From Hydractinia symbiolongicarpus (taxonomy: Eukaryota > Cnidaria > Hydrozoa > Anthoathecata > Hydractiniidae), in NCBI RefSeq assembly GCF_029227915.1, contig NC_079877.1, forward strand, positions 21,479,851-21,543,850: 64,000 nt of DNA. The letters are read 5' to 3'. Position 1 is the stretch's first letter. The number at the start of each line of letters is the position of its first letter. The position numbers and the translations under genes are program-made. The notes beneath the pieces were generated by a model. That model had not been told where the DNA came from, did no database searches, and saw only the letters and a list, made by a program, of their open reading frames with translations. This document shows positions 50,353-62,460 of this stretch, piece after piece.

Positions 50353-51067
50353 TAGCTTTACCTAACCTTCAAGAAGTCATATGTATGCCTGGTAAAAGTG
50401 TTTCTTTTAAATTAAATGACTACAAGGAAGACCTTTGTAAACCATATTCCCAAATTTTATTTTACCTGTGTTTGTCATCACAATTTTATTATAATAGCAA
50501 AAAAAGTGACAAAATCGATTACATCAATGTTGAAAATACGTCCACCAGAGTTGATAATGGTTACAATTTTTTGACAACAATTGACGATGTAGACAATCCA
50601 TTCGGCTTACTTAATGATGGACACGGTTGCAGTTCTATCCCTTCAACAGAGTATAACAGTACACACAGTGCATTTCTTACACTTGATAACAACATCTATT
50701 CAATTGAAAATTATATTGACAATGGACCATCTTTAACAGACAAACTTGAAAACTCGCAGGCATCTCTAAAAATAGTAGGAACTGTGGAGCTTTCAGTGAG
50801 TCGGAGAAAAATTTGGCTTGACACATTAGAGAAATTACAACGTTTATACAGTAGAGTCTCCATAACTCGAACAGCCACGGGGAAAAGGAAATCGTTCGAG
50901 TTATGGAGACATTCGAGTTGTAGAGGTTTTCAACTTTTAGCGCAATATCCTCCCTTTACGTGAACCAGCTGGATAAAAACGTTATATTTAATCTTAAGTC
51001 TAACTTTAAGGCGGCTATTAGGTTAATGAAAGTCAAAACAATACACTTTTAATGAATTTTTTAATGT

Positions 51068-53386
51068 TTATTTAGAAAAGAAGTCGGTGATAACTGTTTG
51101 CTTACAACTCATATCAAAATCTTTGGCGATATTACGATTCAAGTCCCTCAGGGAAGCTATCATTTCTTCTTCAAAATGTGAAAAAATACTCAAGTCTTCG
51201 AAGACGTTGATAGCTGTACGCACTTGCTCGGCCGTCGGTCTTGTGATCTTATCTTCTTCCTCCTTGTCTTCTTCGTCGACCTCTTCTAATTCTTCGTCTT
51301 GAGTCCCAGTGATCTCAGCAATGATGTCAGCAGTCTTCAGACGCCCATGGGATGTACTGACTTCAATGTCAAAATCAATGAAATCTTCAGTTGATAAGTC
51401 AGGATCAATGTGGTCAGGAAACCTTCGTTTTATGTAAGAGAGTTCAGCATCGAGGGTTGGAATTGGGTCTTCTTCTACTTCGCTGGTTAAACTTTTAAAA
51501 GGGTCGTCATCTTCGTTGATCGCTCTTTCTGCATCCTTTTGGGAAATTCCTGATTTTCGAAAGCAATTGGTGAATGTTTTGTTGGAAACATCATCCCATG
51601 CTTTCCTTAGCATGTACATAGCTCCAAGAATCGAGAACTTCGGAGTCGATTTTTCCTCGTCCAAGGCTTTTATCAATTTCCGCACTGCTAGCGATCGATA
51701 TTTTGCTTTCAGGGCGCGGATAATTCCTTGGTCCATAGGTTGGGTTAGGGACGTGGTATTTGGAGGAAGAAAGATCAATTCTACCCATTCCAGGTTTTCA
51801 ACATGAGGATGTGCGGTACAATTGTCAATAATCAAAGCAATTTTTCGCTTAGAGACAGAGAATTTTCGATCAAGCTCGCGTACCCACTCTTCGAACAGCT
51901 CTCCAGACATCCAACTCTTCTTTTGCGAACGGTATCGACAGGGTAGTGTTTTGACACCTTTAAAGCAACGAGGGTTGGCGGACTTGCCGATTACAAACAT
52001 TGGCAATCGTTCCCCCAAGGCATTACCAGCAGCTAAACCAGTAAGTCTAACTTTGCTGTGTTTTCCTCCAGAACACTTATCACCTTTCATGTGCAAAGTT
52101 TTACTGGGAAGGCATTGAAAGAAAAGCCCAAATTCGTCGGCGTTAAAAATGTCTTCCAGAGGATAGCGGGAGAGAATGGTTGGTAATGTTGTCTCCGACC
52201 ATGGCGCTGTCATTTCCTCAGTGACGGACCGTGATTCTCCAGCGATGGTTTTGAAGGATACTCCATACCTGAAAGGAATGGATGAGAAAAACGTTTATCT
52301 CTGTAGTTGTGACTAGTGTAGATGGAGCTTTACATTTTGTTTGATTCGAATCATGGAATTCTAAATTTAGAATGCCATGGCCATGATTCGAATAGAAAAC
52401 ATTCGATTGTTACCATGTTTTGATTTGTGAAAGAATTCAAATAGAAAAAGATTCGATTTTTACCAAGTTTCGAAGTTTTGACGAGTGAAAGAAAGCATGG
52501 AAGCCATGAAAGTCCAACAAGTCAAAAGATTAACAGACATTATTTGTTGTATAGAACTTCCTATCATTAAACTTACTACGTACGAAATCGACGCTTTTGT
52601 CATGGGGTATCATGTTTATAAAAGTAATTGGACACCCTCTGTTGGAGATGAATTTTATGGTTTCATGGAACCAACAAATAAAATGGATAAATATGCAGTT
52701 GCAGTCAAGAAAAATGATGGAGAAATCATTGGACATCTACCACTAGGAAAGTCAGGACGCTTTGCAAAAGTCATATTTTACTTTCTGAAGAATGACAGCT
52801 TCAATGTATGCAAAATAACAATTACTGGAAAGTCATTGAATGCTGGTGATGGATTAGGGATGAAAGTCCCATGCAAATTATCCTTCCTCTCTGAAAGAGA
52901 GTCTATTGATATTTTGAAAAAACAACTACCAAAGCTATTGTAACATTTTTTTAGATTTTATCTTCACGAAGATAAACAAACAAAATCTTAGTCAACTAAC
53001 CTGGTTTTCCATTTAGCCATCCACCCCTGACAAGCTTGAAATGACTCGACACCCAACGCTTTGGCAAACTCAAGAGCTTTCTCTTTCAGCATCGGGCCAC
53101 TGATTGGGATATTCTCACTCCTCATCATAAGTAACCATTTATGAACAGCTTTGTTCACATCTTCGAATTTTTCTGGCTTTGATCTCTTCGATGTTTGCCC
53201 GTTGTTAAACTGCTTGTAAATCTTTTCTTTATTTTTTTTCCAAGTTGACAGGGTGCTTGGAGGAATTTTGAACTCTTTTGCCACATCCTTTGGCGCAGTA
53301 CCCTTTTCCAACGCTTTAAGAGCTTTGTACTTGATTTTGCACGACTTATTGTCAATTCGACGCTTTGATCCTGCCACAGACGACAT
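51068..53386 (-). CDS. Pogo/Tigger transposase, two exons, intact (528 aa)
   Basis: Exon 1 is 53386-53001 and exon 2 is 52268-51068. The join (KWKTR|YGVSFKTIAGES) keeps phase across a GT-AG intron and gives 528 residues with no stop. The N-terminal part has a psq/CENP-B-type helix-turn-helix (EKGTAPKDVAKEFKIPPSTL, residues about 25-50), followed by the second CENP-B-like DNA-binding domain (VNKAVHKWLLMMRSENIPIS). Exon 2 carries the DDE_1 catalytic core: aspartates in DIFNADEFGLF, ALIIDNCTAHP and TQPMDQGIIRALK, the DDD triad of pogo elements. The C-terminal third is acidic (EEVDEEDKEEEDK). Start ATG 53386 follows upstream frame sequence without good Met context. It cuts and reinserts DNA at TA sites. 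Confidence 0.9.
52344..52395. repeat. Palindromic block upstream of the HIRAN gene
   Basis: ATTCGAATCATGG and CCATGATTCGAAT form a 13-bp perfect inverted repeat around an AT-rich centre that is itself partly palindromic (TTCTAAATTTAGAA). It lies about 100 bp before the HIRAN start codon, within the transposase intron, and could be its promoter/operator. Similar ATTCGA words recur up to 52460. Confidence 0.7.
52497..52943 (+). CDS. HIRAN-domain protein in a pogo element (148 aa)
   Basis: An intact frame from ATG 52497 (MEAMKVQQVKRLTDIICC) to TAA at 52943. The middle matches the HIRAN domain: AFVMGYHVYKSNWTPSVGDE, FYGFMEPTNKMDKYAVAVKK, DGEIIGHLPLGKSGRFAKVI, then KVPCKLSFLSE at the end. The GD.F....EP.N..DKYAVAV....G..IGHLP signature is characteristic. 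In HLTF and related proteins HIRAN binds the 3'-OH end of DNA strands. It lies antisense, wholly inside the transposase intron, with its own AT-rich palindromic upstream region. No other domain is present. A start GTG at 52485 would add four residues. Its role in the transposon is unknown; a function in handling DNA ends after excision is my inference. Confidence 0.8.
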   Translation: MEAMKVQQVKRLTDIICCIELPIIKLTTYEIDAFVMGYHVYKSNWTPSVGDEFYGFMEPTNKMDKYAVAVKKNDGEIIGHLPLGKSGRFAKVIFYFLKNDSFNVCKITITGKSLNAGDGLGMKVPCKLSFLSERESIDILKKQLPKLL

Positions 53387-54813
53387 TGTTATGAGAGTGT
53401 CTTTCTTTTGAAATTCTTTAGATTTTCTCGAAAACGTTCGAAAAAGACGTTCGAAAGGTTTGGATGACGCATCATTAATCATTCGAATTAATAATAAGGC
53501 CTGCAAAACACGTATTAACAAGATTTTTAGACCCAATTTATCAGGAAAACTGTTCGAATTTTGATTATGATGTCAGAAAATTCGAGTTATGGAGAGAAAA
53601 GTCTCCAAGGGACAAAAAAATTTGTTCGAGTTAAGGGAAGATTCGAGTTATGGAGGTTCGAGTTGTAGAGGTTTTTTTATAAGAGTTTATTAGGAAATTT
53701 TCACGGTGCCAACGAATTTGTTCGAGTTAAGGAGAGATTCGAGTTATAGAGGTTCGAGTTATGGAGACTCTACTGTATCATGAAGGTGTTAAACCGTTTA
53801 CAATTACATTCATTGGTGAAGAAGCACAAGATGGTGGTGGGCCACTTAAAGAGCTCTTTGCAGCACTTTTTGATGATGTGAAAAAATATTTATTGCAATC
53901 AGGTGATAATGGCTCAACATTCCAGCATGACTTCGAGAAATTACAAAAAGGACATTTCAAATTATTTGGTAACCTAGTGTCATTAGCACTTATCATGAGT
54001 TGTGCTGGGCCAAGGTATTTTATGCCTTGTGTTGTATCGATGCTCTTGGATGGTGGTACAGAAGTTTTCAAAGTCGATGACGTCCCCGACAAAAACTTAA
54101 AACTATATTAGCTGCCACCAGACAATGCTGCCTTCAAGACAGCTATACAGCTATTCCCAGAGAGATACGCTTTAGGAGTTACAAAAGTCAATGTAAGTTT
54201 AACATCATCAGACACTGCTGTTTATCCACTTGTGCAGAAGAAATTGCCTCATTTTTAAGTGGGTTGGATATTCTTGGAATGTTAACAATTTTAAAAACAC
54301 ATTACAAAGAAAGTGAAATCGAATTCGCTATTTCCAAATCATGTCAATCCTCAGATGTATAGAAAATTTACACTACAGTAGAATACACAAGTAATACAGA
54401 AGATAAATCACTACGTGAAGCAGAAGAAGACATATGTTACAACTGGACAAATTTTTTAGAAATTTTAGAGCACGAGGGATAAAAAAAAGTCAAAATTATT
54501 TGTCTGAACGAAGAAAGGGCATGAGTCAAACAAAGAGCATGTAATCACTTTAAGTGATGTTGTTCAATTTTGTACTGGTTCAAAATTTGTTTTGTCATCA
54601 ATGTATGGAAAAGGGAAAATATCTTTTAATCATGTCAATGATGAGCAGTTTGGGAAATGTGTCAATGTAAGCATATGCTTAATGATCATGACATTCCCAG
54701 TAACACCAAGATACTTGGAGAATTTTACTGAAAGTTTTTGTACAGATATCTGCCTGGATTTGGACAAATTTGATCAACTTGTGTTTATGAAGTATATGTG
54801 TAGAAATTTTTGA

Positions 54814-55320
54814 AGGTTTTATTGCATTTATAATTTATGATGAGTTTTAGATATATATAATCAGGGAGGAATGAAAATTTTAATTTATAATTAAGGGGTG
54901 AAAATAACTTTTCTATGTGCTAGTTAATTCTCTTGAATACACGAACACCTAAATACATGAACTCATAATTTTTACTACTCTTTCTCCCTGATGCATATGA
55001 ATAAGTCGATTATTTTTTGTTTATTCACTTCTTCAACACCATGTCATGTTAGTTGCATTTTGGTATATTATATATTTATTTGGTATATTATATATATATT
55101 GAAAAAAGTCTTCACAAGAGACAGTATATTGTACTTTTTATGTTTGACATAAATTTTGTTAATGTTCATATGCAGACTCCTTTTCTTACTACTTATGTTT
55201 GACTGCACGCCAATATCATTCGACTTACATGAAAAATAGGCTTGTTTATACTACTATGTTATATTTCTATGGATGAAAATTATGTTATTAGTTTCAAATG
55301 TCTCTTTTCTATGTTCATAG
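54814..55320. other. No feature recognised
   Basis: AT-rich sequence between the HECT remnant and the minus-strand integrase gene; contains a short TATATTTATTTGGTATATTA duplication at about 55062-55100. Confidence 0.4.
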
Positions 55321-57086
55321 TTTATACACAAAGTTTTGTTATCTGTTCGAACAAACCCTGACCATTGTGCCATTTTTTTGGTGGATATTCCATGTTCTCT
55401 GATTGTACCACATATTTAAAATATTGAAGAAGTTCAGTATGGACCTCTGTCATAGCGTTCCTACCTTCTGAAATTACATCTCTTTGCGATGTTAATTTAT
55501 GTATATCATCTTCTGATATCAAGCGTTTTTGGTCATTAGCATTAACTGCAGTTGGCAAGTAAAATAAGATATCTGGAATTCCACTCACACTGTCGTGGCG
55601 GGACTTTCGTATAAAGTGGGTATTCCATTGGTAGCGAACCTGGTATAGTTGAGATTGTAATAAATCAGAAAACACAAACCAAACACATTCCTCATGAATG
55701 TGATTCCCCGGCAATAACACTCCTTTCTCTACCATATTCTTTAAAAAAATTATTATCCAACTTGTAAAAGATCGTCGATAGAAGGACTACCAATTTTCGA
55801 TCCTTTGATTGGACAGCGATGACTCATATCTGTGTGCGTTAGCGTCTTGTGTTAAGTAACACCGCATATCAGCCATAACACCGTTTTCGGTACCACAATC
55901 TGTTTGAACTAAAAGTGGACAAAACCCTAACTCTTTTACTTTTTCTAAGAACAAGTGAGCAGATACTAGTGGGTTGTTATTGCTCCTGGAAACTTTCAAC
56001 CATAAAACTTTTCGCGAGAAACCATCAATACAACCGTGAATGGTTTCAGTTTATCATACCCATCCACATGCCAGCAATTGTTAGGACCGGGTGATGTGTA
56101 TTCTCTACGGCGTAGACGGCGCGATCTTCTTTGTTCAGTACCATCCGGGTCTAACTCTCTTAGCAGTTGCATCACGGTGTCACGTGTAGCCATTATGAAC
56201 ATCGAAGTGAATGCCAAAGCCCTTGGTATCCTTTCACTGCAGCTGGACCTTGTAGTTCTTGTTCAATTATACTACGTAAAACTGCCTCGTTAACATTACT
56301 ACGTCTCCTTTTCAACCCAAGACTTTGACATTAATGTGCTGACATATTCTTAAAAACAGAGAACGATTGCATTGTATGGGAAATGCTTCCCAAAGTAGCG
56401 TAATACGGGGCAAGATGGGACACTTAAGGTTATTTTCCTAAATAACACCTGCTGTTAAAATGAAGTAGTTTAGAATTTCACCTGAAATGAACCTATACCT
56501 ATTACAATTTATGTGCAGCCAAATAATCAGCAAAAAACTATCATCAAATTTGGGAAAAATGACTAAAACGTAATGGGGAGGTGTTGTCCCATCTTGCCCC
56601 GCAATCGGGGTAGAATGGGACATGAAAAAAAAAGTTAAATTAAGCAGATCATGTTTATTTTATAATAAAAGTTACAATAATATATCATGGATGCCTACCG
56701 TAAACACACACAAAATTATTAGAGAAGAAAGCATGTTACAAAAAGTTATATTATAAGTGGTCAATCGAAAAGGTAAAAAATAGTAGCCACTTTAATTGGA
56801 GAAACTTTCGCCAGAGAAAGTTTCGCGAATTCGCGATTTTTCGCCATTTTCGCAAAAGTTTATCTCGCGAAAATTTGCGAGTTTCTTAATTCGCGAAACT
56901 TTATCTCGCGAAATTTTCCGAATTTCTTCATTCGCGAAAGTTTATCCAGTAAGCTATTTTATCATTTTTCACCAAAAACGCACAAAATACTTAGAAATCT
57001 TATTTCGAGAAAGAAAATTTATAACATTTACAATCGAATCCAGTATTCAATACTAATATCTGTGTTGATACAAAGATACAAAAAAA

Positions 57087-57713
57087 TTAATCTATGACGA
57101 TAGTCTCTGTGTTTTCGTCTCGTCTTTTCATGTTTTCGTTATTTGCGTCTTCACTCTTTGACCTTTTCGATTCTTTGTTTTTATATAACATGTCTCTTAT
57201 GTCATGTGATTTTGTCTCTTTCACCTTTTTTCTTTTCTCACCATTTGGTAAATTCTTCTTGTAAATCTCATGGGATACACATTCGACCTCCAATTCGTCC
57301 GCAAAGATAGAACCAAGGATGATGGGTGCTGTTGGTTCACTGTACACTGCGTCTACTAGTTCCATTAGGCGGTCAAGAAGTTGTCCATTTTTCAATGTTG
57401 GAGACATTTCCACCGTCACTTTACAGGGAATTTCTATGCCGCCTTGAACCAATGGTGATTTTCTGTAGTGTGTCGATGTCAAAACTGCCAGAATTCTTGC
57501 CCCTCTGTCCAAAATAAACTTTAGAGTTCTTGAAAGCTCACGTGGCAAATGACCAACAATTGTACCATCTTCTTGACACGTTTTGATGGCAAAATAGTCG
57601 AAGGCATTGTTTTCTTCGTGGAGGCAAAAAAGCTTTTCTTCCTTTTGAGGAGACCAATATTTTCTGAAATAATGGAAACCACGAACAGCCGCATCAAATG
57701 TTCTTGACAACAT
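57087..57713 (-). CDS. HIRAN-domain protein in the second pogo element (208 aa)
   Basis: An intact frame from ATG 57713 (MLSRTFDAAVRGFHYFRKYW) to TAA 57087. The N-terminal 110 residues form a HIRAN domain: SPQKEEKLFCLHEENNAFDY, FAIKTCQEDGTIVGHLPREL, LKFILDRGARILAVLTS, EIPCKVTV. The DYFAIK....G.IVGHLP core matches the DKYAVAV....G..IGHLP core of the gene at 52497, but the two differ at most positions, so they are old relatives, not recent copies. A lysine/serine-rich C-terminal tail (KKVKETKSHDIRDMLYKNKE) follows and could be a nuclear localisation or DNA-contact region. It is divergently oriented to the transposase, possibly sharing a promoter. A catalytic helicase or ring domain, as in HLTF, is absent. 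Confidence 0.8.
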   Translation of the reverse strand: MLSRTFDAAVRGFHYFRKYWSPQKEEKLFCLHEENNAFDYFAIKTCQEDGTIVGHLPRELSRTLKFILDRGARILAVLTSTHYRKSPLVQGGIEIPCKVTVEMSPTLKNGQLLDRLMELVDAVYSEPTAPIILGSIFADELEVECVSHEIYKKNLPNGEKRKKVKETKSHDIRDMLYKNKESKRSKSEDANNENMKRRDENTETIVID

Positions 57714-57986
57714 TCTTACTGGCCTCTTCAATCATCAATGATAACAAAGTTTCGAATGTTATTGTTAAAACAATAGAAAGAGGATGATATTTTCGAATGT
57801 TATTTTTGAAACAATAGAGGATGAGATTAAACAATAGAAAGAGACTCTCCTTCGTGGGACTTATTTCTGTAGTTAGCTTTATTTTGCAGCATTATTACCT
57901 TTGGTGGAGGGTGTCCAAAAATTGATACGTTTGTTTATTTCCGTAAAAACTCTCTACTCTCGTAATTTCATATCGGAGTGAACAAG
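57714..57986. promoter_or_regulatory. Divergent spacer between HIRAN gene and transposase
   Basis: 273 bp between two opposed ATG codons. It contains two near-copies of a GTTATTNTTAAAACAATAGA/GTTATTTTTGAAACAATAGA stretch and AGAGATGAGATTAAACAATAGAAAG, so repeated AACAATAGA words occur three times. It probably serves both genes; no TATA box was assigned with confidence. Confidence 0.45.
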
Positions 57987-59845
57987 ATGTCGTTTCTAAG
58001 AGCTTCTGTAAAGAAACAAACAACTATCACTGCAGAAAAAAGTAATGAAAAACAAAACTCTCAAGAAGAAAATGAAAAGCAAAACTCTCAAGAAGAAAAT
58101 GAAAAGCAAAACTCACAAGAAGGAAATGAGAAAGGTATGAATCATAATGAAAATTTATTTTGCTTTATTTAGAGGTTTGAGATTATTATCGCTTAAAAAG
58201 TACCTAACAGTACAGTACTACTCAAATCTTAAGTAAATACTACTCTAATCTTAGGAAATGCTTCGAACAACACTACACTTGGCGATATCGATTTTGAAAC
58301 AATGCAGGATGGAAAAGCTGCCAAGTCTGCAACTTACATCAAATGGACCGACGAGAACCGTTATACGATTGGGAAGTTTGCCTCTGAACATGGAAACACT
58401 TCAGCTGTCCGGCATTTTCGGAAGCAATTCCCAAACATAAAAGAAAGTACTGTAAGGGATTTCAAAAAAAAGTATGAAAGGCTTATTCAAGAAGCAAAAA
58501 AAAGAAATGTCGAACCACCTAAAATGATCGAAAAGTACAGTTCAAAGACTGGACGACCTTTGCTCTTAGGAAAATTTAATCATATGGTCCAAACGTACAT
58601 CGAAGGAATGAGCAATCGGGGTGCTGTTATAACCTGGTCTATCGCTAATGCCGCCGCTAAAGCCTTGATCAGAAAATACCCTAACATTATAGGAGACATC
58701 AATCTTGAATCTTCGTATTGGTCGCAGAGTTTATTTCGAAGAATGGGATTTTGTCGTCGCCGAAAAACTTGTGCCAAAATTGATCTCCCAGAATCTGCCC
58801 GAAAAGAGATCGAGTACCTTTTCTTGTACGAAATTGTATCAAAAGTGGAGAAGTACACGATTCCAGATTGTTTGATAATCAACTTCGACCAAACACCATT
58901 GAAAATGGTTCAATGTGGAAACAGCACCCTTGCAAAGAAAAACAGCAAAGCAGTTACAATTGTAGGAGCTGATGATAAGAGATCTATAACAGCCACTTTT
59001 TCTGTTACCTTATCAGGAAAATTTCTCCCAATGCAATTAATTTACGGTGGGAAAACATTGCAAAGTTTATCGCGTTACAAGTTCCCCAAAGATTTTTCCT
59101 TAAGTGTAAACAGGAAACACTTTTCCAACACCACCGAGTCCATTAAATTGCTGAATGAAGTAATTGTTCCGTATGTTAAAAAAGAGCGGGAGCTAAAAGG
59201 TCTTGATAAACGACAAAAGGCACTTGTGATAATGGACGTATTCACGGGGCAAATGACTTCCGAAGTCAAAGAAGTTTTAGAGAAAAACGACATATTAGTT
59301 ACCAATGTTCCTGCAAACATGACCCGTTTTTATCAGCCATTAGATCTTACAGTAAATGGGAGCGCCAAAAGATTTATTGCGAAGAAATTCCATAACTGGT
59401 ACTCGCAACAATATCCGATGAGCTCGAATCTGGCAAGTCATTGGAAGAAATCGAAATCAAACTGCGTCTTTCTACCCTCAAACCACTACACGCGGGTTGG
59501 ATAATGGATTTCTACAACTACATAACGTCAGGCGAAGGAAAAAAAGTCGCCATGAATGGTTGGAAAAGTGCAGGCACTTACGATGCTTTAAAGCAAGGCA
59601 CCGAAAAATTACCAAACATAGATCCTTTTCATGATATTGATCCGCTGATGGGTAACAATCCTTCAACTGTTGCAACAAATTTAGACGCAGTCTGTCAGCT
59701 ACGCCAGGAACAGTTTGATTCATTTCGCAGCCAGAGAGATATCAACGGAGATTACGAAGATGATGAGGAAGTATGGCAGCCTGAAGAACATCATACCAAT
59801 GCATTCGATCTATTTGACGATTTTGATGACGAAACATCTTTGTAA
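57987..59845 (+). pseudogene. Pogo-class transposase, two exons, one late frameshift
   Basis: Exon 1 is 57987-58134 and begins MSFLRASVKKQTTITAEKSN, with a 9-residue repeat NEKQNSQEE three times. Exon 2 starts at 58255; the join (NEK|G|NASNNTTLGDIDFE) keeps phase. The DNA-binding part has EHGNTSAVRHFRKQFPNIKE and a CENP-B-like domain (WSIANAAAKALIRKYPNIIG). The catalytic core has LIINFDQTPLKMV, VIMDVFTGQMTSEV and TRFYQPLDLTVNGSAKRF, giving the acidic triad. A one-base loss near 59415 shifts the frame; the family sequence continues in the next frame as DELESGKSLEEIEIKLRLST to 59845, where an acidic tail (DDEEVW, FDDFDDE) ends it. Only this shift prevents full translation. Confidence 0.8.
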
Positions 59846-60070
59846 AATATAAGAGTTTTTGAAAACTTATATTATGGCTAGAGAAAGTGACGATTATGCT
59901 AAGAATTTTGAAGTTTTTTCTAACAGAAAAATCCTTGTTCGCGAAAGTTTATCTCGCGAAATTTTCCGAATTTCTATCTTCGCGAAAGTTTATCCAAAAA
60001 ATTTCGCGAATTTTTTTTCTCGCGAAACTTTCTCTCGCGAAAGTTTCTCCAATTAAAGTATATATATATA

Positions 60071-61802
60071 TTAACATAAGTCACATAGAGTTTCACCACC
60101 TGGAAACGTGCAGCACACTTCGTGGCACCAGGTCACACAACATACACAATGGACCCACTTTTCACCCTCCTTTGCATTGCTCCACAGTCCGTTGCAAACA
60201 TAACACACCCAGTCTTCAAGAACAAGCTTTACTTTTGCTTTCGATTTACCTTTCCCGCGATCCTTTTTTGGTTTTAAGCATTTTTTTATTTATATTTTCC
60301 TTTATTTTGTTCTTCTTCGGCAAATTTTCTTCCAACATATTACGATGTGGTGATGCTGTTATAATAATTGATTTCTCACCCTTTTTTGCTGGCATTTTAA
60401 CGTTTGGTACAGGAACAATGTTTTCAGAACTTGTTTCAAAGGAAAATTGAACAGCTTTTGAAGATGAAGGTTCTTCAACAGGTGTTGAAGAGAGCACAAC
60501 AGGTGATGATTGAGGTGTGTTGGTAACAGTGGACGATTGAGGTGCAGTGGTAACATTGGGTAAAGTGGTCTCGACTGATAAACGTGCATCATCAGCATAT
60601 TCACTATCAGGAATAACATCACGATTTAATGGTACAATTCCACTTGTTCTAAAACCAGAAACTGCATTTTGAGTTGTCGCTGCTTTACAATATGCAGTTG
60701 AAAAAATTTCACCAATCTGGTCAACACTTATTTTACGTCCCGGGTGTTCCCTCATCCATAGACTACATTCTATGTGAAAAGCAGTCTTCAGTGGCTTAAA
60801 AAAACTTCGATCTAGAGGTTGTAACTTATGGGAGGTGTGCGGTGGTAGGGACAATAAAACCATACCATTCTCTCTGCAATAATCTATAGTTTCTATGTTT
60901 TTCGTATGTGTAACATGACCATTAAGAATCAGTAAGACTTTCTGATCCTTTAAATAACGTACATGTACACGAAAGTGTTTGATATATGTGAGAAAAAGTT
61001 TAGTTGTTATCCAGCCATTGTCCGAGCACCCTCCTATTGTACCAGGTGGGGCATCAATGAGTTCAGGTTTCATTCTTTTCCTTTTAAAAATCAGTAAAGG
61101 TGGCACATAATTTCCTGTAGCACTGGTGCAACACACAATTGTTGTAGTGACTCCCTTCTCACCGCTGGTAGCTGAGGAGACACAGTGTTTGCCTTTTAGG
61201 GCAATCACCTTTATTAGTTTGTGTACTGCTGTTATGCCAGATTCATCACAATTATAAATTTGGTGGATCGAAATTTATAAGTGTCTAAAATATTTTCTAA
61301 ATTGGTGAAATAGTTTGATAGACTCTCGGTTAAGTCCATAAATTCGATTAAGAGCAACGCCCTGTGGTTCTCGTAAAGATAAAATTGGGTTTCTTTTAAG
61401 AAATCCTTCAACAAAATCTCTTCCAGCAAGACCCGAGACCACATTGAAAGGGTGAGGAATCTTGTTTTTATCGACATATTGAAAAACAATACGTTGAATG
61501 TCATTAATCGTCAAACCATAAAATACAGTGTCCATATCTATAATATACTTGACAAGCTTATCTTCCTGGTCCTTGGTTAGAACTGTCCTTTTAGGACCCA
61601 GTATTTTTGTATGTAAGTTATCCTCAATGAGTAACTTTAACTTACCAGTTACCCTTCTGTGAAGAGCATTTTTAGGCACATAGAATGCATCTGCAGCTTT
61701 ACGTAAACTCATCTCTTTATTTTTGACAGCTCGTATGGCTTCCAGCATTGAATCTTCAGACCACAGCCATCTCTGTGTTTTTCTGACATAATTTCTAACC
61801 AT
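60071..61802 (-). pseudogene. Pogo-like transposase with C-terminal PHD finger, inactive
   Basis: Start ATG 61802 (MVRNYVRKTQRWLWSEDSML). A helix-turn-helix region (EAIRAVKNKEMSLRKAADAF, VPKNALHRRV) and a CENP-B-like domain follow. Between about 61300 and 61230 single-base shifts break the frame around YNCDESGITAVHK, which holds the first catalytic aspartate. Next come GEKGVTTTIVCCTSATGNYV, then VLLILNGHVTHTKN, where the second catalytic aspartate (normally LDGH) is asparagine, and LSLPPHTSHKLQPLDRSFFK with the third. After a serine/proline-rich linker, a final shift at about 60260 leads into a C4HC3 PHD-type finger (CYVC, HCVCC, WCHEVCC, LCDLC) ending at 60071. PHD-like C-termini are known in some pogo relatives. 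This copy cannot be catalytically active. Confidence 0.85.
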
Positions 61803-62460
61803 TTTGAATTGTAATCTAAAATATAGGAATAAACTTAAGTTGTTCGGAACCAAATCATATACAAAAACAAACCTAGAATAAGGCCCGAAAAATTATACTC
61901 TTGTTCCATCTTGCCCCACTATCATAACCTTAAAGTTAACCTAAATTTCCAGGTACCACTGCCCAGTTGAGTTAAAATTATTTTGTAAAGTTCAAGACAT
62001 ACCCTGGCTCTAGCTAAAAACACATAAATAACTTTTAAAACCGTAAATAAAACAAAACACAAGAAATTCTAAAAACTAAAAAGATTTTAGACATAGCTAA
62101 AATTTATCGCACATTCCACCCTCCTCACAAAATTATATAAAAAAAGAAAGTTTCAGTTACTTACACGAAGTAGAATGACGTGTTCCACGGCAGCTCTTTA
62201 TTTTAACACATTGTAAATTGCCGAACGACAGAAAAGCGAATTAAATATAAAAATGTCCCGTCTTACCCCATGTCCCGTCTTGCGCCGCATTACGCTAATA
62301 AACTATCAATTCTCGCTCATCTGCTGTAGCTGAAGGACTGTCTGAGGTAGTACATAAGTCTTTTCGTGATCCACATTGAGTACAAAATAATAAATCGTCA
62401 GATAACTGCCTATCACACTGCGTACAGAATGAATGGAGAAGAAACGGATCAGTGCCATGC

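What the first reader, a model, noticed from the sequence alone, without database searches (positions are those of the whole stretch)
50849..60058. Two different pogo-class transposons each carry a HIRAN-domain gene
Both elements have their own ends and DDE_1 transposase, and each has an intact, separate HIRAN-domain gene on the opposite strand to the transposase. The HIRAN proteins (148 and 208 aa) share the core DK/DYxAxK...G.I.GHLP but little else, so the association is old or arose twice. HIRAN is known to bind 3' DNA ends (HLTF family). I infer a partner protein that protects, senses or directs repair of ends left by excision, or helps copy the element at stalled forks. I do not know of a description of HIRAN genes in pogo/Tigger elements.
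Basis: partly seen in the sequence, partly recalled or inferred. Interest (0 to 1): 0.92.

Follow-up and report, generated by a model that had tools for sequence, protein, structure and literature searches.

The report
Pogo jumping genes carrying HIRAN genes
Two distantly related pogo-type jumping genes in what looks like a Hydractinia genome each carry, beside their transposase, a second gene whose protein is predicted to have the fold of the human HLTF module that grips the 3' ends of DNA, which hints that these transposons aim at, or shield, replicating or cut DNA.

Summary
Confirmed and extended. Element 1 (50849-53775) and element 2 (56790-60058) are TIR-bounded pogo elements with DDE_1 transposases from different groups (DD30D, DD35D) and a HIRAN gene on the opposite strand. 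Predicted models of both HIRAN proteins match HLTF HIRAN best in the PDB; element 1's is below the Pfam cut-off.

The gene belongs to the transposons. Element 1 has at least 24 full-length match rows genome-wide; 6 of 7 copies read have unbroken HIRAN and transposase, though two deleted copies lack HIRAN. Of 24 HIRAN loci read (not a random sample), 18 lie opposite a pogo transposase or remnant. HIRAN is constrained as protein, like the transposase.

New here: a PCNA-type motif goes with the pair. In element-1-type families it is a PIP box at the transposase C-terminus; in element-2-type families it is on the HIRAN protein, as a DIRxFF-like motif plus a SUMO-binding-like end (Srs2-like layout).

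Best reading (0.4): 3'-end binding plus clamp binding, a functional analogue of Tn7 TnsE, couples transposition to replication. Main rival: end cap/HLTF decoy. No biochemistry was possible. The searched open literature gave no description. Spread among animals is unknown: the homologues found are almost all unnamed.

The parts
50849..53775 (.). Element 1, pogo (Tigger-like, DD30D) transposon; TA at 50847-50848 and 53776-53777
   Evidence: inverted repeat; boundaries; 24 of 54 match rows cover the whole query genome-wide
50849..50872 (+). Element 1 left TIR
   Evidence: I1, 100% complementary
53752..53775 (-). Element 1 right TIR
   Evidence: I1
51068..52268 (-). Element 1 transposase, exon 2 (DDE_1); exon start is a splice prediction
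   Evidence: PF03184 6.4e-39; CAG acceptor before 52268
51077..51100 (-). PIP box QTVITDFF at transposase C-terminus
   Evidence: 5 of 20000 shuffles have one in the last 20 aa
53001..53386 (-). Element 1 transposase, exon 1 (CENP-B_N + HTH_Tnp_Tc5)
   Evidence: GT donor at 53000 and frame kept
52269..53000 (-). Predicted transposase intron, which contains the HIRAN gene on the other strand
   Evidence: GTTAGT...TTTCAG, exon lengths keep the frame
52497..52943 (+). HIRAN gene 1, 148 aa
   Evidence: PF08797 21.7 bits, below cut-off; model pLDDT 82.6; HLTF HIRAN best fold match; 140 homologues at E<=1e-3
56790..60058 (.). Element 2, pogo (DD35D) transposon; TA at 60059-60060, CA at 56788-56789
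   Evidence: family end TA-CTTTAATTGGAG in L018, L019
56790..56828 (+). Element 2 left TIR
   Evidence: I1, 98%
60020..60058 (-). Element 2 right TIR
   Evidence: I1, 98%
57087..57713 (-). HIRAN gene 2, 208 aa
   Evidence: PF08797 29.9 bits; fold match HLTF HIRAN; 180 homologues at E<=1e-3
57186..57203 (-). DIRDML, degenerate member of the DIRxFF (PIP-like) motif of the family
57090..57101 (-). C-terminal IVID, SUMO-interacting-motif-like end
58302..59504 (+). Element 2 transposase ORF (DDE_1), broken by a frameshift at about 59.42 kb
   Evidence: compared with P0241
59441..59845 (+). Element 2 transposase, remainder in another frame
57987..58135 (+). Possible first transposase exon (MSFLRASVKKQ...)
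   Evidence: ORF and position only; in place like the N-terminus of P0348; inference

Best explanation
Shown: several families of pogo transposons in this genome carry a HIRAN gene opposite the transposase, and between families it is constrained at the protein level like the transposase. Inferred: the HIRAN protein is a DNA-end/fork adaptor. Its HIRAN fold grips 3' DNA termini, and a PCNA-binding motif (on the transposase in element-1-type families, on the HIRAN protein's tail in element-2-type families) ties the transposition machinery to the sliding clamp. Together they couple excision or insertion to replicating or gapped DNA, a functional analogue of Tn7 TnsE, which also combines recognition of 3' ends with a clamp motif. 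The tail of element-2-type HIRAN proteins (PIP-like plus SIM-like end, the layout of yeast Srs2) suggests a preference for SUMO-modified PCNA.
For: Predicted fold of both proteins matches HLTF HIRAN best. The asparagine equivalent to HLTF N91 (changed with N90 to disable HIRAN) is kept in 24 of 24 rows of each alignment. Element-2-type HIRAN homologues with a tail of 40 aa or more (87 of the 120 listed of 180 found): DIR-type motif 52 of 87 (tail shuffles mean 0.1, max 1), strict PIP 9 of 87 (mean 0.08, max 1), SIM-like end 42 of 87 (mean 4.5, max 11); the 222- and 236-aa families of this genome read KQKDIRNFF and NQKDIRSFF. Strict PIP in 0 of 120 element-2-type transposase homologues (best 120 of 749; shuffles mean 2.7) and 0 of 120 HIRAN1 homologues (best 120 of 140; shuffles mean 0.7), but at the C-terminus of both Tigger-type transposases examined. 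Opposite-strand layout in 18 of the 18 loci that have a transposase match, of 24 read. Constraint: HIRAN pS 0.75-0.85 with pN 0.20-0.40. HIRAN and transposase identities correlate, r 0.80, 23 of 5040 permutations as high. pogo transposase binds PCNA; TnsE binds recessed 3' ends and the beta-clamp (review passages). Rad5's HIRAN domain itself mediates PCNA binding in yeast (passage).
Against: No binding, expression or insertion-bias data. The window's own element 2 has a degenerate motif (DIRDML), and 35 of 87 tails lack the DIR-type motif. Element-1-type HIRAN proteins mostly lack the aromatic residues aligned with HLTF Y72 and Y93 (V41, M64; a tyrosine one place further, Y42, is kept in 22 of 24), so 3'-end binding may be altered there. 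HLTF's own HIRAN domain shows no detectable PCNA binding (passage). Four of the seven pairs in the correlation rest on equal contig lengths; 4 such coincidences were seen where shifted controls gave mean 1.0 and up to 4. Two internally deleted element-1 loci lack HIRAN. Shuffles ignore shared ancestry.
Confidence: 0.4

Rival explanations
1. End cap / HLTF decoy. The motor-less HIRAN protein binds the 3' overhangs of excised transposon ends and donor gap and keeps HLTF from stripping the transposase off the post-cleavage complex, or blocks resection.
For: The isolated HLTF HIRAN domain acts dominant-negatively: it inhibits HLTF removal of Cas9 and resection, the N90A-N91A form much less so, and it binds best where a 3' overhang is exposed (PMC11237066 passages). 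Pfam finds no SNF2 or RING domain in the transposon HIRAN proteins scanned.
Against: Does not by itself explain the recurrent PCNA-type motif; whether HLTF removes pogo transposases is unknown.
Confidence: 0.25
2. Donor-site repair director. HIRAN and PCNA/SUMO-PCNA binding steer repair of the excision gap (for example towards copying from the sister), raising copy number.
For: Tandem PIP and SIM in Srs2 recruit it to SUMO-PCNA and restrain homologous recombination (PMC10127746 passages); the family tail has that layout. Copies are many: 24 full-length rows of element 1.
Against: Srs2 is a helicase, and no helicase domain is present here; no excision footprints were examined.
Confidence: 0.15
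3. Regulator of the transposase gene or its silencing: the opposite-strand gene gives antisense RNA or a repressor, and the fold is used as a DNA-binding subunit at the TIR repeats.
For: Opposite-strand layout in 18 of 18 loci with a transposase match, and in element 1 the gene sits in the predicted transposase intron.
Against: Antisense effects alone would not conserve a protein fold and a pocket residue.
Confidence: 0.1
4. Passenger: a captured HLTF-type exon without function.
For: The host genome has an HLTF-like HIRAN exon (L026). In 12 internally deleted element-1 loci HIRAN is untouched no more often than random placement of the deletions allows (9 of 12, random mean 6.7, 2605 of 20000 as many).
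Against: Protein-level constraint between families; 180 and 140 homologues at E<=1e-3; repeated association in several families.
Confidence: 0.04

Closest known systems
pogo/Tigger superfamily DNA transposons
   Same: TIRs, TA flanks, DDE_1 transposase with CENP-B_N/HTH_Tnp_Tc5 (element 1), DD30D and DD35D spacings as described for pogo groups, C-terminal PIP box in element-1 type as reported for pogo and Tigger
   Different: A second, conserved HIRAN gene on the opposite strand; the word HIRAN does not occur in the main text of two pogo surveys (PMC7325037, PMC7386202)
HLTF/Rad5 HIRAN domain
   Same: Best PDB fold match for both proteins; N91 and D94 equivalents conserved
   Different: Stand-alone proteins without SNF2 or RING; an extra W-x-P segment; aromatic pocket residues kept in element-2 type, mostly lost in element-1 type
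Tn7 TnsE
   Same: Predicted combination of 3'-end recognition and sliding-clamp binding in a transposon accessory protein (review passages)
   Different: No sequence relationship claimed or tested; bacterial Tn7 versus eukaryotic element
Yeast Srs2 C-terminus
   Same: PIP-like motif followed by a SIM (passages)
   Different: No helicase; here the motifs follow a HIRAN domain; SUMO binding untested

Membership tests
pogo superfamily transposon | DDE_1 catalytic domain with DDxD | tested here: met
   (6.4e-39; 1.1e-6); DD30D and DD35D (the 35 was measured on copy L019)
pogo superfamily transposon | TIRs and TA target duplication | tested here: met
   element 1: 7 of 7 copies read flanked by TA; element 2: TA on the right only in the window, TA on both sides in L018 and L019
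pogo superfamily transposon | HTH / CENP-B-type DNA-binding domain | tested here: inconclusive
   met for element 1; element 2 has no Pfam HTH hit; its 222-aa-family relative only HTH_Tnp_Tc5 E 0.035, below cut-off
HIRAN domain PF08797 | Score over the Pfam gathering cut-off | tested here: inconclusive
   met for element 2 (29.9), not met for element 1 (21.7 against 24.7)
HIRAN domain PF08797 | HIRAN fold | tested here: met
   Foldseek best matches HLTF HIRAN, prob 1.00; on predicted models, not solved structures
HLTF/Rad5 family | SNF2 translocase and RING domain in the same protein | tested here: not met
   no SNF2 or RING match in the 148- and 208-aa proteins
3'-end-binding HIRAN | Binds 3'-OH DNA ends | not testable with these tools
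   pocket residues only: N91 equivalent 24 of 24 in both alignments; Y72/Y93 equivalents aromatic in element-2 type, mostly lost in element-1 type
PIP-box protein | Qxx[ILM]xxF[FY] (allowing Y first) | tested here: met
   transposases of element 1 and the 192-aa family; HIRAN of the 222- and 236-aa families by reading; NOT met by the window's element 2 HIRAN (DIRDML)
Srs2-like tandem PIP-SIM receptor | SUMO-PCNA binding | not testable with these tools
   sequence layout only
TnsE | Homology to TnsE | not tested
   proposed only as a functional analogue

The most novel reading that the evidence does not exclude
A eukaryotic cut-and-paste transposon superfamily has its own replication-targeting module: a HIRAN 3'-end reader joined, in one protein or across two, to a PCNA (possibly SUMO-PCNA) handle. 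It is a convergent counterpart of Tn7 TnsE that also competes with the host HLTF. The clamp motif has moved between transposase and accessory protein in different pogo groups.
Probability: 0.3. Interest if true: 0.92.

Novelty: new variant of a known kind. Interest (0 to 1): 0.76.

Why it matters
Pogo elements are usually described as one-gene transposons (recalled; one survey says that extra ORFs can occur in DNA transposons), and what the PCNA motif of their transposase is for has stayed unclear (review passage). A conserved accessory gene for a likely DNA-end reader makes that question testable: does a eukaryotic cut-and-paste transposon recruit or block host fork-remodelling proteins? It would also matter for annotation, since multi-copy HIRAN genes in such genomes would be transposon genes rather than host repair genes, and it offers natural motor-less HIRAN proteins as possible HLTF inhibitors.

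Tried and rejected
Chance host-gene capture without function: thought unlikely, because full-length copies keep the gene and it is constrained. HIRAN of this type in prokaryote or viral contigs: none confirmed (28 pattern stretches, 0 relatives; 10 stretches, 0; 1 and 7 stretches, 0). Linkage in other datasets by equal contig lengths: 4 pairs for element 2, but shifted controls averaged 1.0 with a maximum of 4, and the HIRAN1 control list gave 1, so it is weak. Preferential keeping of HIRAN in deleted element-1 copies: 9 of 12 loci untouched against 6.7 expected, not significant; two loci with the same breakpoints lost HIRAN, one lost its first 21 bases. Selection within the 214-aa family: too few differences to read; L020 left out for length. 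Better survival of HIRAN than transposase in that family (open HIRAN frame in 6 of 6 copies, one without its ATG; transposase unbroken to its end in 0 of 6) was noted but not pressed: small sample, and the loci were found through HIRAN. Tree of 61 columns: three groups (element-2 type; element-1 type with the 192-aa family, support 95; HLTF with L029/L030, support 96); it cannot tell one capture from two without an outside root. Share of all pogo elements that carry HIRAN, and the genome-wide copy count of element 2: not obtained, because the genome search stayed busy. Literature: HIRAN with transposon and pogo 0 papers, 'HIRAN domain' with 'transposable element' 4, with 'transposon' 13, HIRAN with transposase 7, with transposable 5. 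From titles and abstract starts none describes this; I looked inside only one of those papers (there HIRAN is a person's name). One search was uninformative.
Full report
The sequence. Element 1 spans 50849-53775 with TA on both sides, and element 2 spans 56790-60058 with TA on the right and CA on the left. [quoted passage not shown] Element 1's transposase is in two exons around a predicted 732-bp GT-AG intron, and the HIRAN gene (52497-52943) lies in that intron on the other strand. Element 2 has the HIRAN gene (57713-57087) head to head with the transposase; its transposase copy has a frameshift near 59.42 kb. DDxD spacings of 30 for element 1, 32 for the 192-aa-HIRAN relative, and 35 for element 2 (measured on copy L019) put them in different pogo groups by the scheme of PMC7325037 (section 10 read, passages elsewhere).

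Are they HIRAN proteins? Element 2 passes the Pfam cut-off; element 1 does not (21.7 against 24.7 bits). AlphaFold models (mean pLDDT 75.3 for element 2's protein, 82.6 for element 1's) both find HLTF HIRAN as best PDB match, then bacterial 3k2y and Rad5. TM-scores against HLTF chains, normalised by the target, are 0.64-0.75, with 18-22% identity. By sequence, a profile of element-2-type proteins finds HLTF at E 5e-7 and one of element-1-type only at 0.04. The two profiles match each other at E 1.5e-14. The HLTF pocket residues Y72, Y93 and the N90/N91 pair are from PMC4666394 and PMC11237066 (passages). The N91 equivalent is invariant in 24 of 24 rows of both alignments. In element-2 type the Y72 and Y93 equivalents are aromatic in 23 and 24 of 24 rows; in element-1 type they are mostly V and M/L/K (rows chosen by me: 23 of 120 listed homologues plus the window protein for each).

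The genome. The window lies in a 480.9-Mb assembly of 76 contigs. One contig length (C4, 35,952,230) equals that given for a Hydractinia symbiolongicarpus protein (P0348), so I take the host to be that hydrozoan; this is an inference. PF08797 gives 91 matches, 82 of 91 without internal stops, from 150 of 251 candidates scored, so the count is a lower bound; element 1's own HIRAN is not among them. They include repeated frames of 192, 214, 222 and 236 aa. I read 24 of these loci (20, 4), chosen to sample the frame lengths, not at random. In 18 of 24 a pogo transposase or remnant lies on the opposite strand beside HIRAN. The other six are L024 (degenerate), L025 (a 1,007-bp TIR-bounded copy with HIRAN only), L026 (HLTF-like host exon), L029 and L030 (apparently another element type, below), and L031 (a 222-aa-family HIRAN without its transposase in the 6 kb read). 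Inverted-repeat ends were sought in 19 of the 24: clear pairs in 17, a partial pair in L021, none in L024. Ends read TA-CAGT... in element-1-type families and TA-CCTTAAGGGAA... or TA-CTTTAATTGGAG... in element-2-type families.

Element 1 is young. A DNA search gives 54 match rows (40 of 429 candidates scored), 24 of them covering 1-2928 of the query, the window copy included. Of seven copies read (window and L033-L038, picked from those rows), 7 of 7 are flanked by TA in unrelated surroundings, and 6 of 7 have HIRAN and both transposase exons without stops or gaps; L038 is broken in both. Against a fixed association: from the same rows I read 12 internally deleted loci. All 12 lost transposase sequence; 9 keep the whole HIRAN stretch, one lost its first 21 bases, and two with identical breakpoints lost it. 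Random placement of the deletions would keep 6.7 on average, so this says nothing for or against retention.

Constraint. Between families of this genome HIRAN shows pS 0.85, 0.76, 0.75, 0.79 with pN 0.20, 0.30, 0.40, 0.37; transposases show pS 0.83-0.84 with pN 0.26-0.39. Synonymous sites are saturated, so no ratio is given, but HIRAN is held at the protein level much as the transposase is. HIRAN and transposase identities correlate over seven pairs (r 0.80; 23 of 5040 permutations as high); four of those pairs are linked only by equal contig length, which is weak.

PCNA-type motifs. The element 1 transposase ends in KQTVITDFFSK and that of the 192-aa family in KQSSIKDYFK: PIP boxes (5 and 15 of 20000 shuffles have one in the last 20 residues). 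A strict PIP occurs in 0 of 120 element-2-type transposase homologues (the best 120 of 749) and in 0 of 120 HIRAN1 homologues (the best 120 of 140). Of the 120 HIRAN2 homologues listed of 180, 102 had the anchor used to cut the tail and 87 a tail of 40 aa or more; the other 33 were left out. Of the 87, 52 hold a DIR-type motif (shuffled mean 0.1), 9 a strict PIP (0.08), and 42 a SIM-like pattern in the last 10 residues (4.5, max 11). The 222- and 236-aa families of this genome read KQKDIRNFF...IINID and NQKDIRSFF...IITIDSD. So the clamp motif sits on the transposase in one group and on the HIRAN protein in the other; only two transposases of the first group were examined. The likeness of DIRxFF to the N-terminus of RFC1 is recalled. 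'PIP' and 'SIM' here are pattern matches.

Mechanism. The pogo transposase was found as a PCNA interactor, and its PIP box is conserved in Tigger and Lemi1 with unclear purpose (PMC5371812 passages). Tn7 TnsE binds recessed 3' ends and the beta-clamp and so directs insertion to discontinuous replication (same review). A HIRAN fold plus a clamp motif would give the same pair of activities; that is my first choice (0.4). The isolated HLTF HIRAN domain is dominant-negative against HLTF at Cas9-cut ends and binds best where a 3' overhang is exposed (PMC11237066 passages), which makes an end cap or HLTF decoy the chief rival (0.25). The Srs2-like tail (PMC10127746 passages) leaves room for a repair-steering role (0.15). 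These can overlap. None was tested.

Known or new? The searches listed in Tried and rejected gave no paper on HIRAN genes in pogo elements. The library holds open-licence PMC papers only, so most subscription journals and Repbase reports were not covered. No relatives were confirmed in prokaryote or viral contigs by the pattern scans. The homologues listed carry no organism names, so the spread among animals is unknown here.

Noticed in passing
L029:1897-3221 and L030:1949-3221 (minus), with plus-strand ORFs at L030:278-1765: What looks like a different repeated element type also carries a HIRAN gene (183 aa; L030 copy 35.8 bits), next to a PHD-finger-like ORF (below Pfam cut-offs), opposite plus-strand ORFs without Pfam hits; no match to the pogo transposases and no clear terminal repeats found. 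In a short tree this HIRAN groups with HLTF rather than with the pogo ones.
   Followed up: partly
L022:4458-5678, L025:4543-5549, L028:3812-5382, L011:3668-5493, L015:4392-6504: Short TIR-bounded derivatives that keep a HIRAN ORF but have lost most or all of the transposase (1.0-2.1 kb). Whether HIRAN is kept by chance or for use in trans is open.
   Followed up: partly
60246-61853 (minus): A third pogo-like DDE_1 transposase (1.9e-22) directly beside element 2, with a separate N-terminal ORF (psq-like by recall), and no HIRAN match of its own in the window stretch searched (40001-64000), so not every pogo-type element here seems to have the gene. Its ends were not mapped.
   Followed up: no
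50385-50846 and 53778-54111 (plus): Element 1 appears to interrupt an ORF; the right-hand part has only a weak HECT match (E 0.15, below cut-off).
   Followed up: no
L012:2349-5835 and L013:2371-5857, element ends: The bases outside the TA are themselves inverted copies (AAATA/TATTT, GACTA/TAGTC), hinting at a preference for palindromic target sites in the 222-aa family.
   Followed up: no
56799-56946 and 59941-60049: Element 2 has several degenerate GATAAACTTTCGC/GAGAAACTTTCGC repeats inside each end (12 matches in the window with up to 2 mismatches, one of them outside the element; 1.45 expected), probably transposase-binding subterminal repeats.
   Followed up: no
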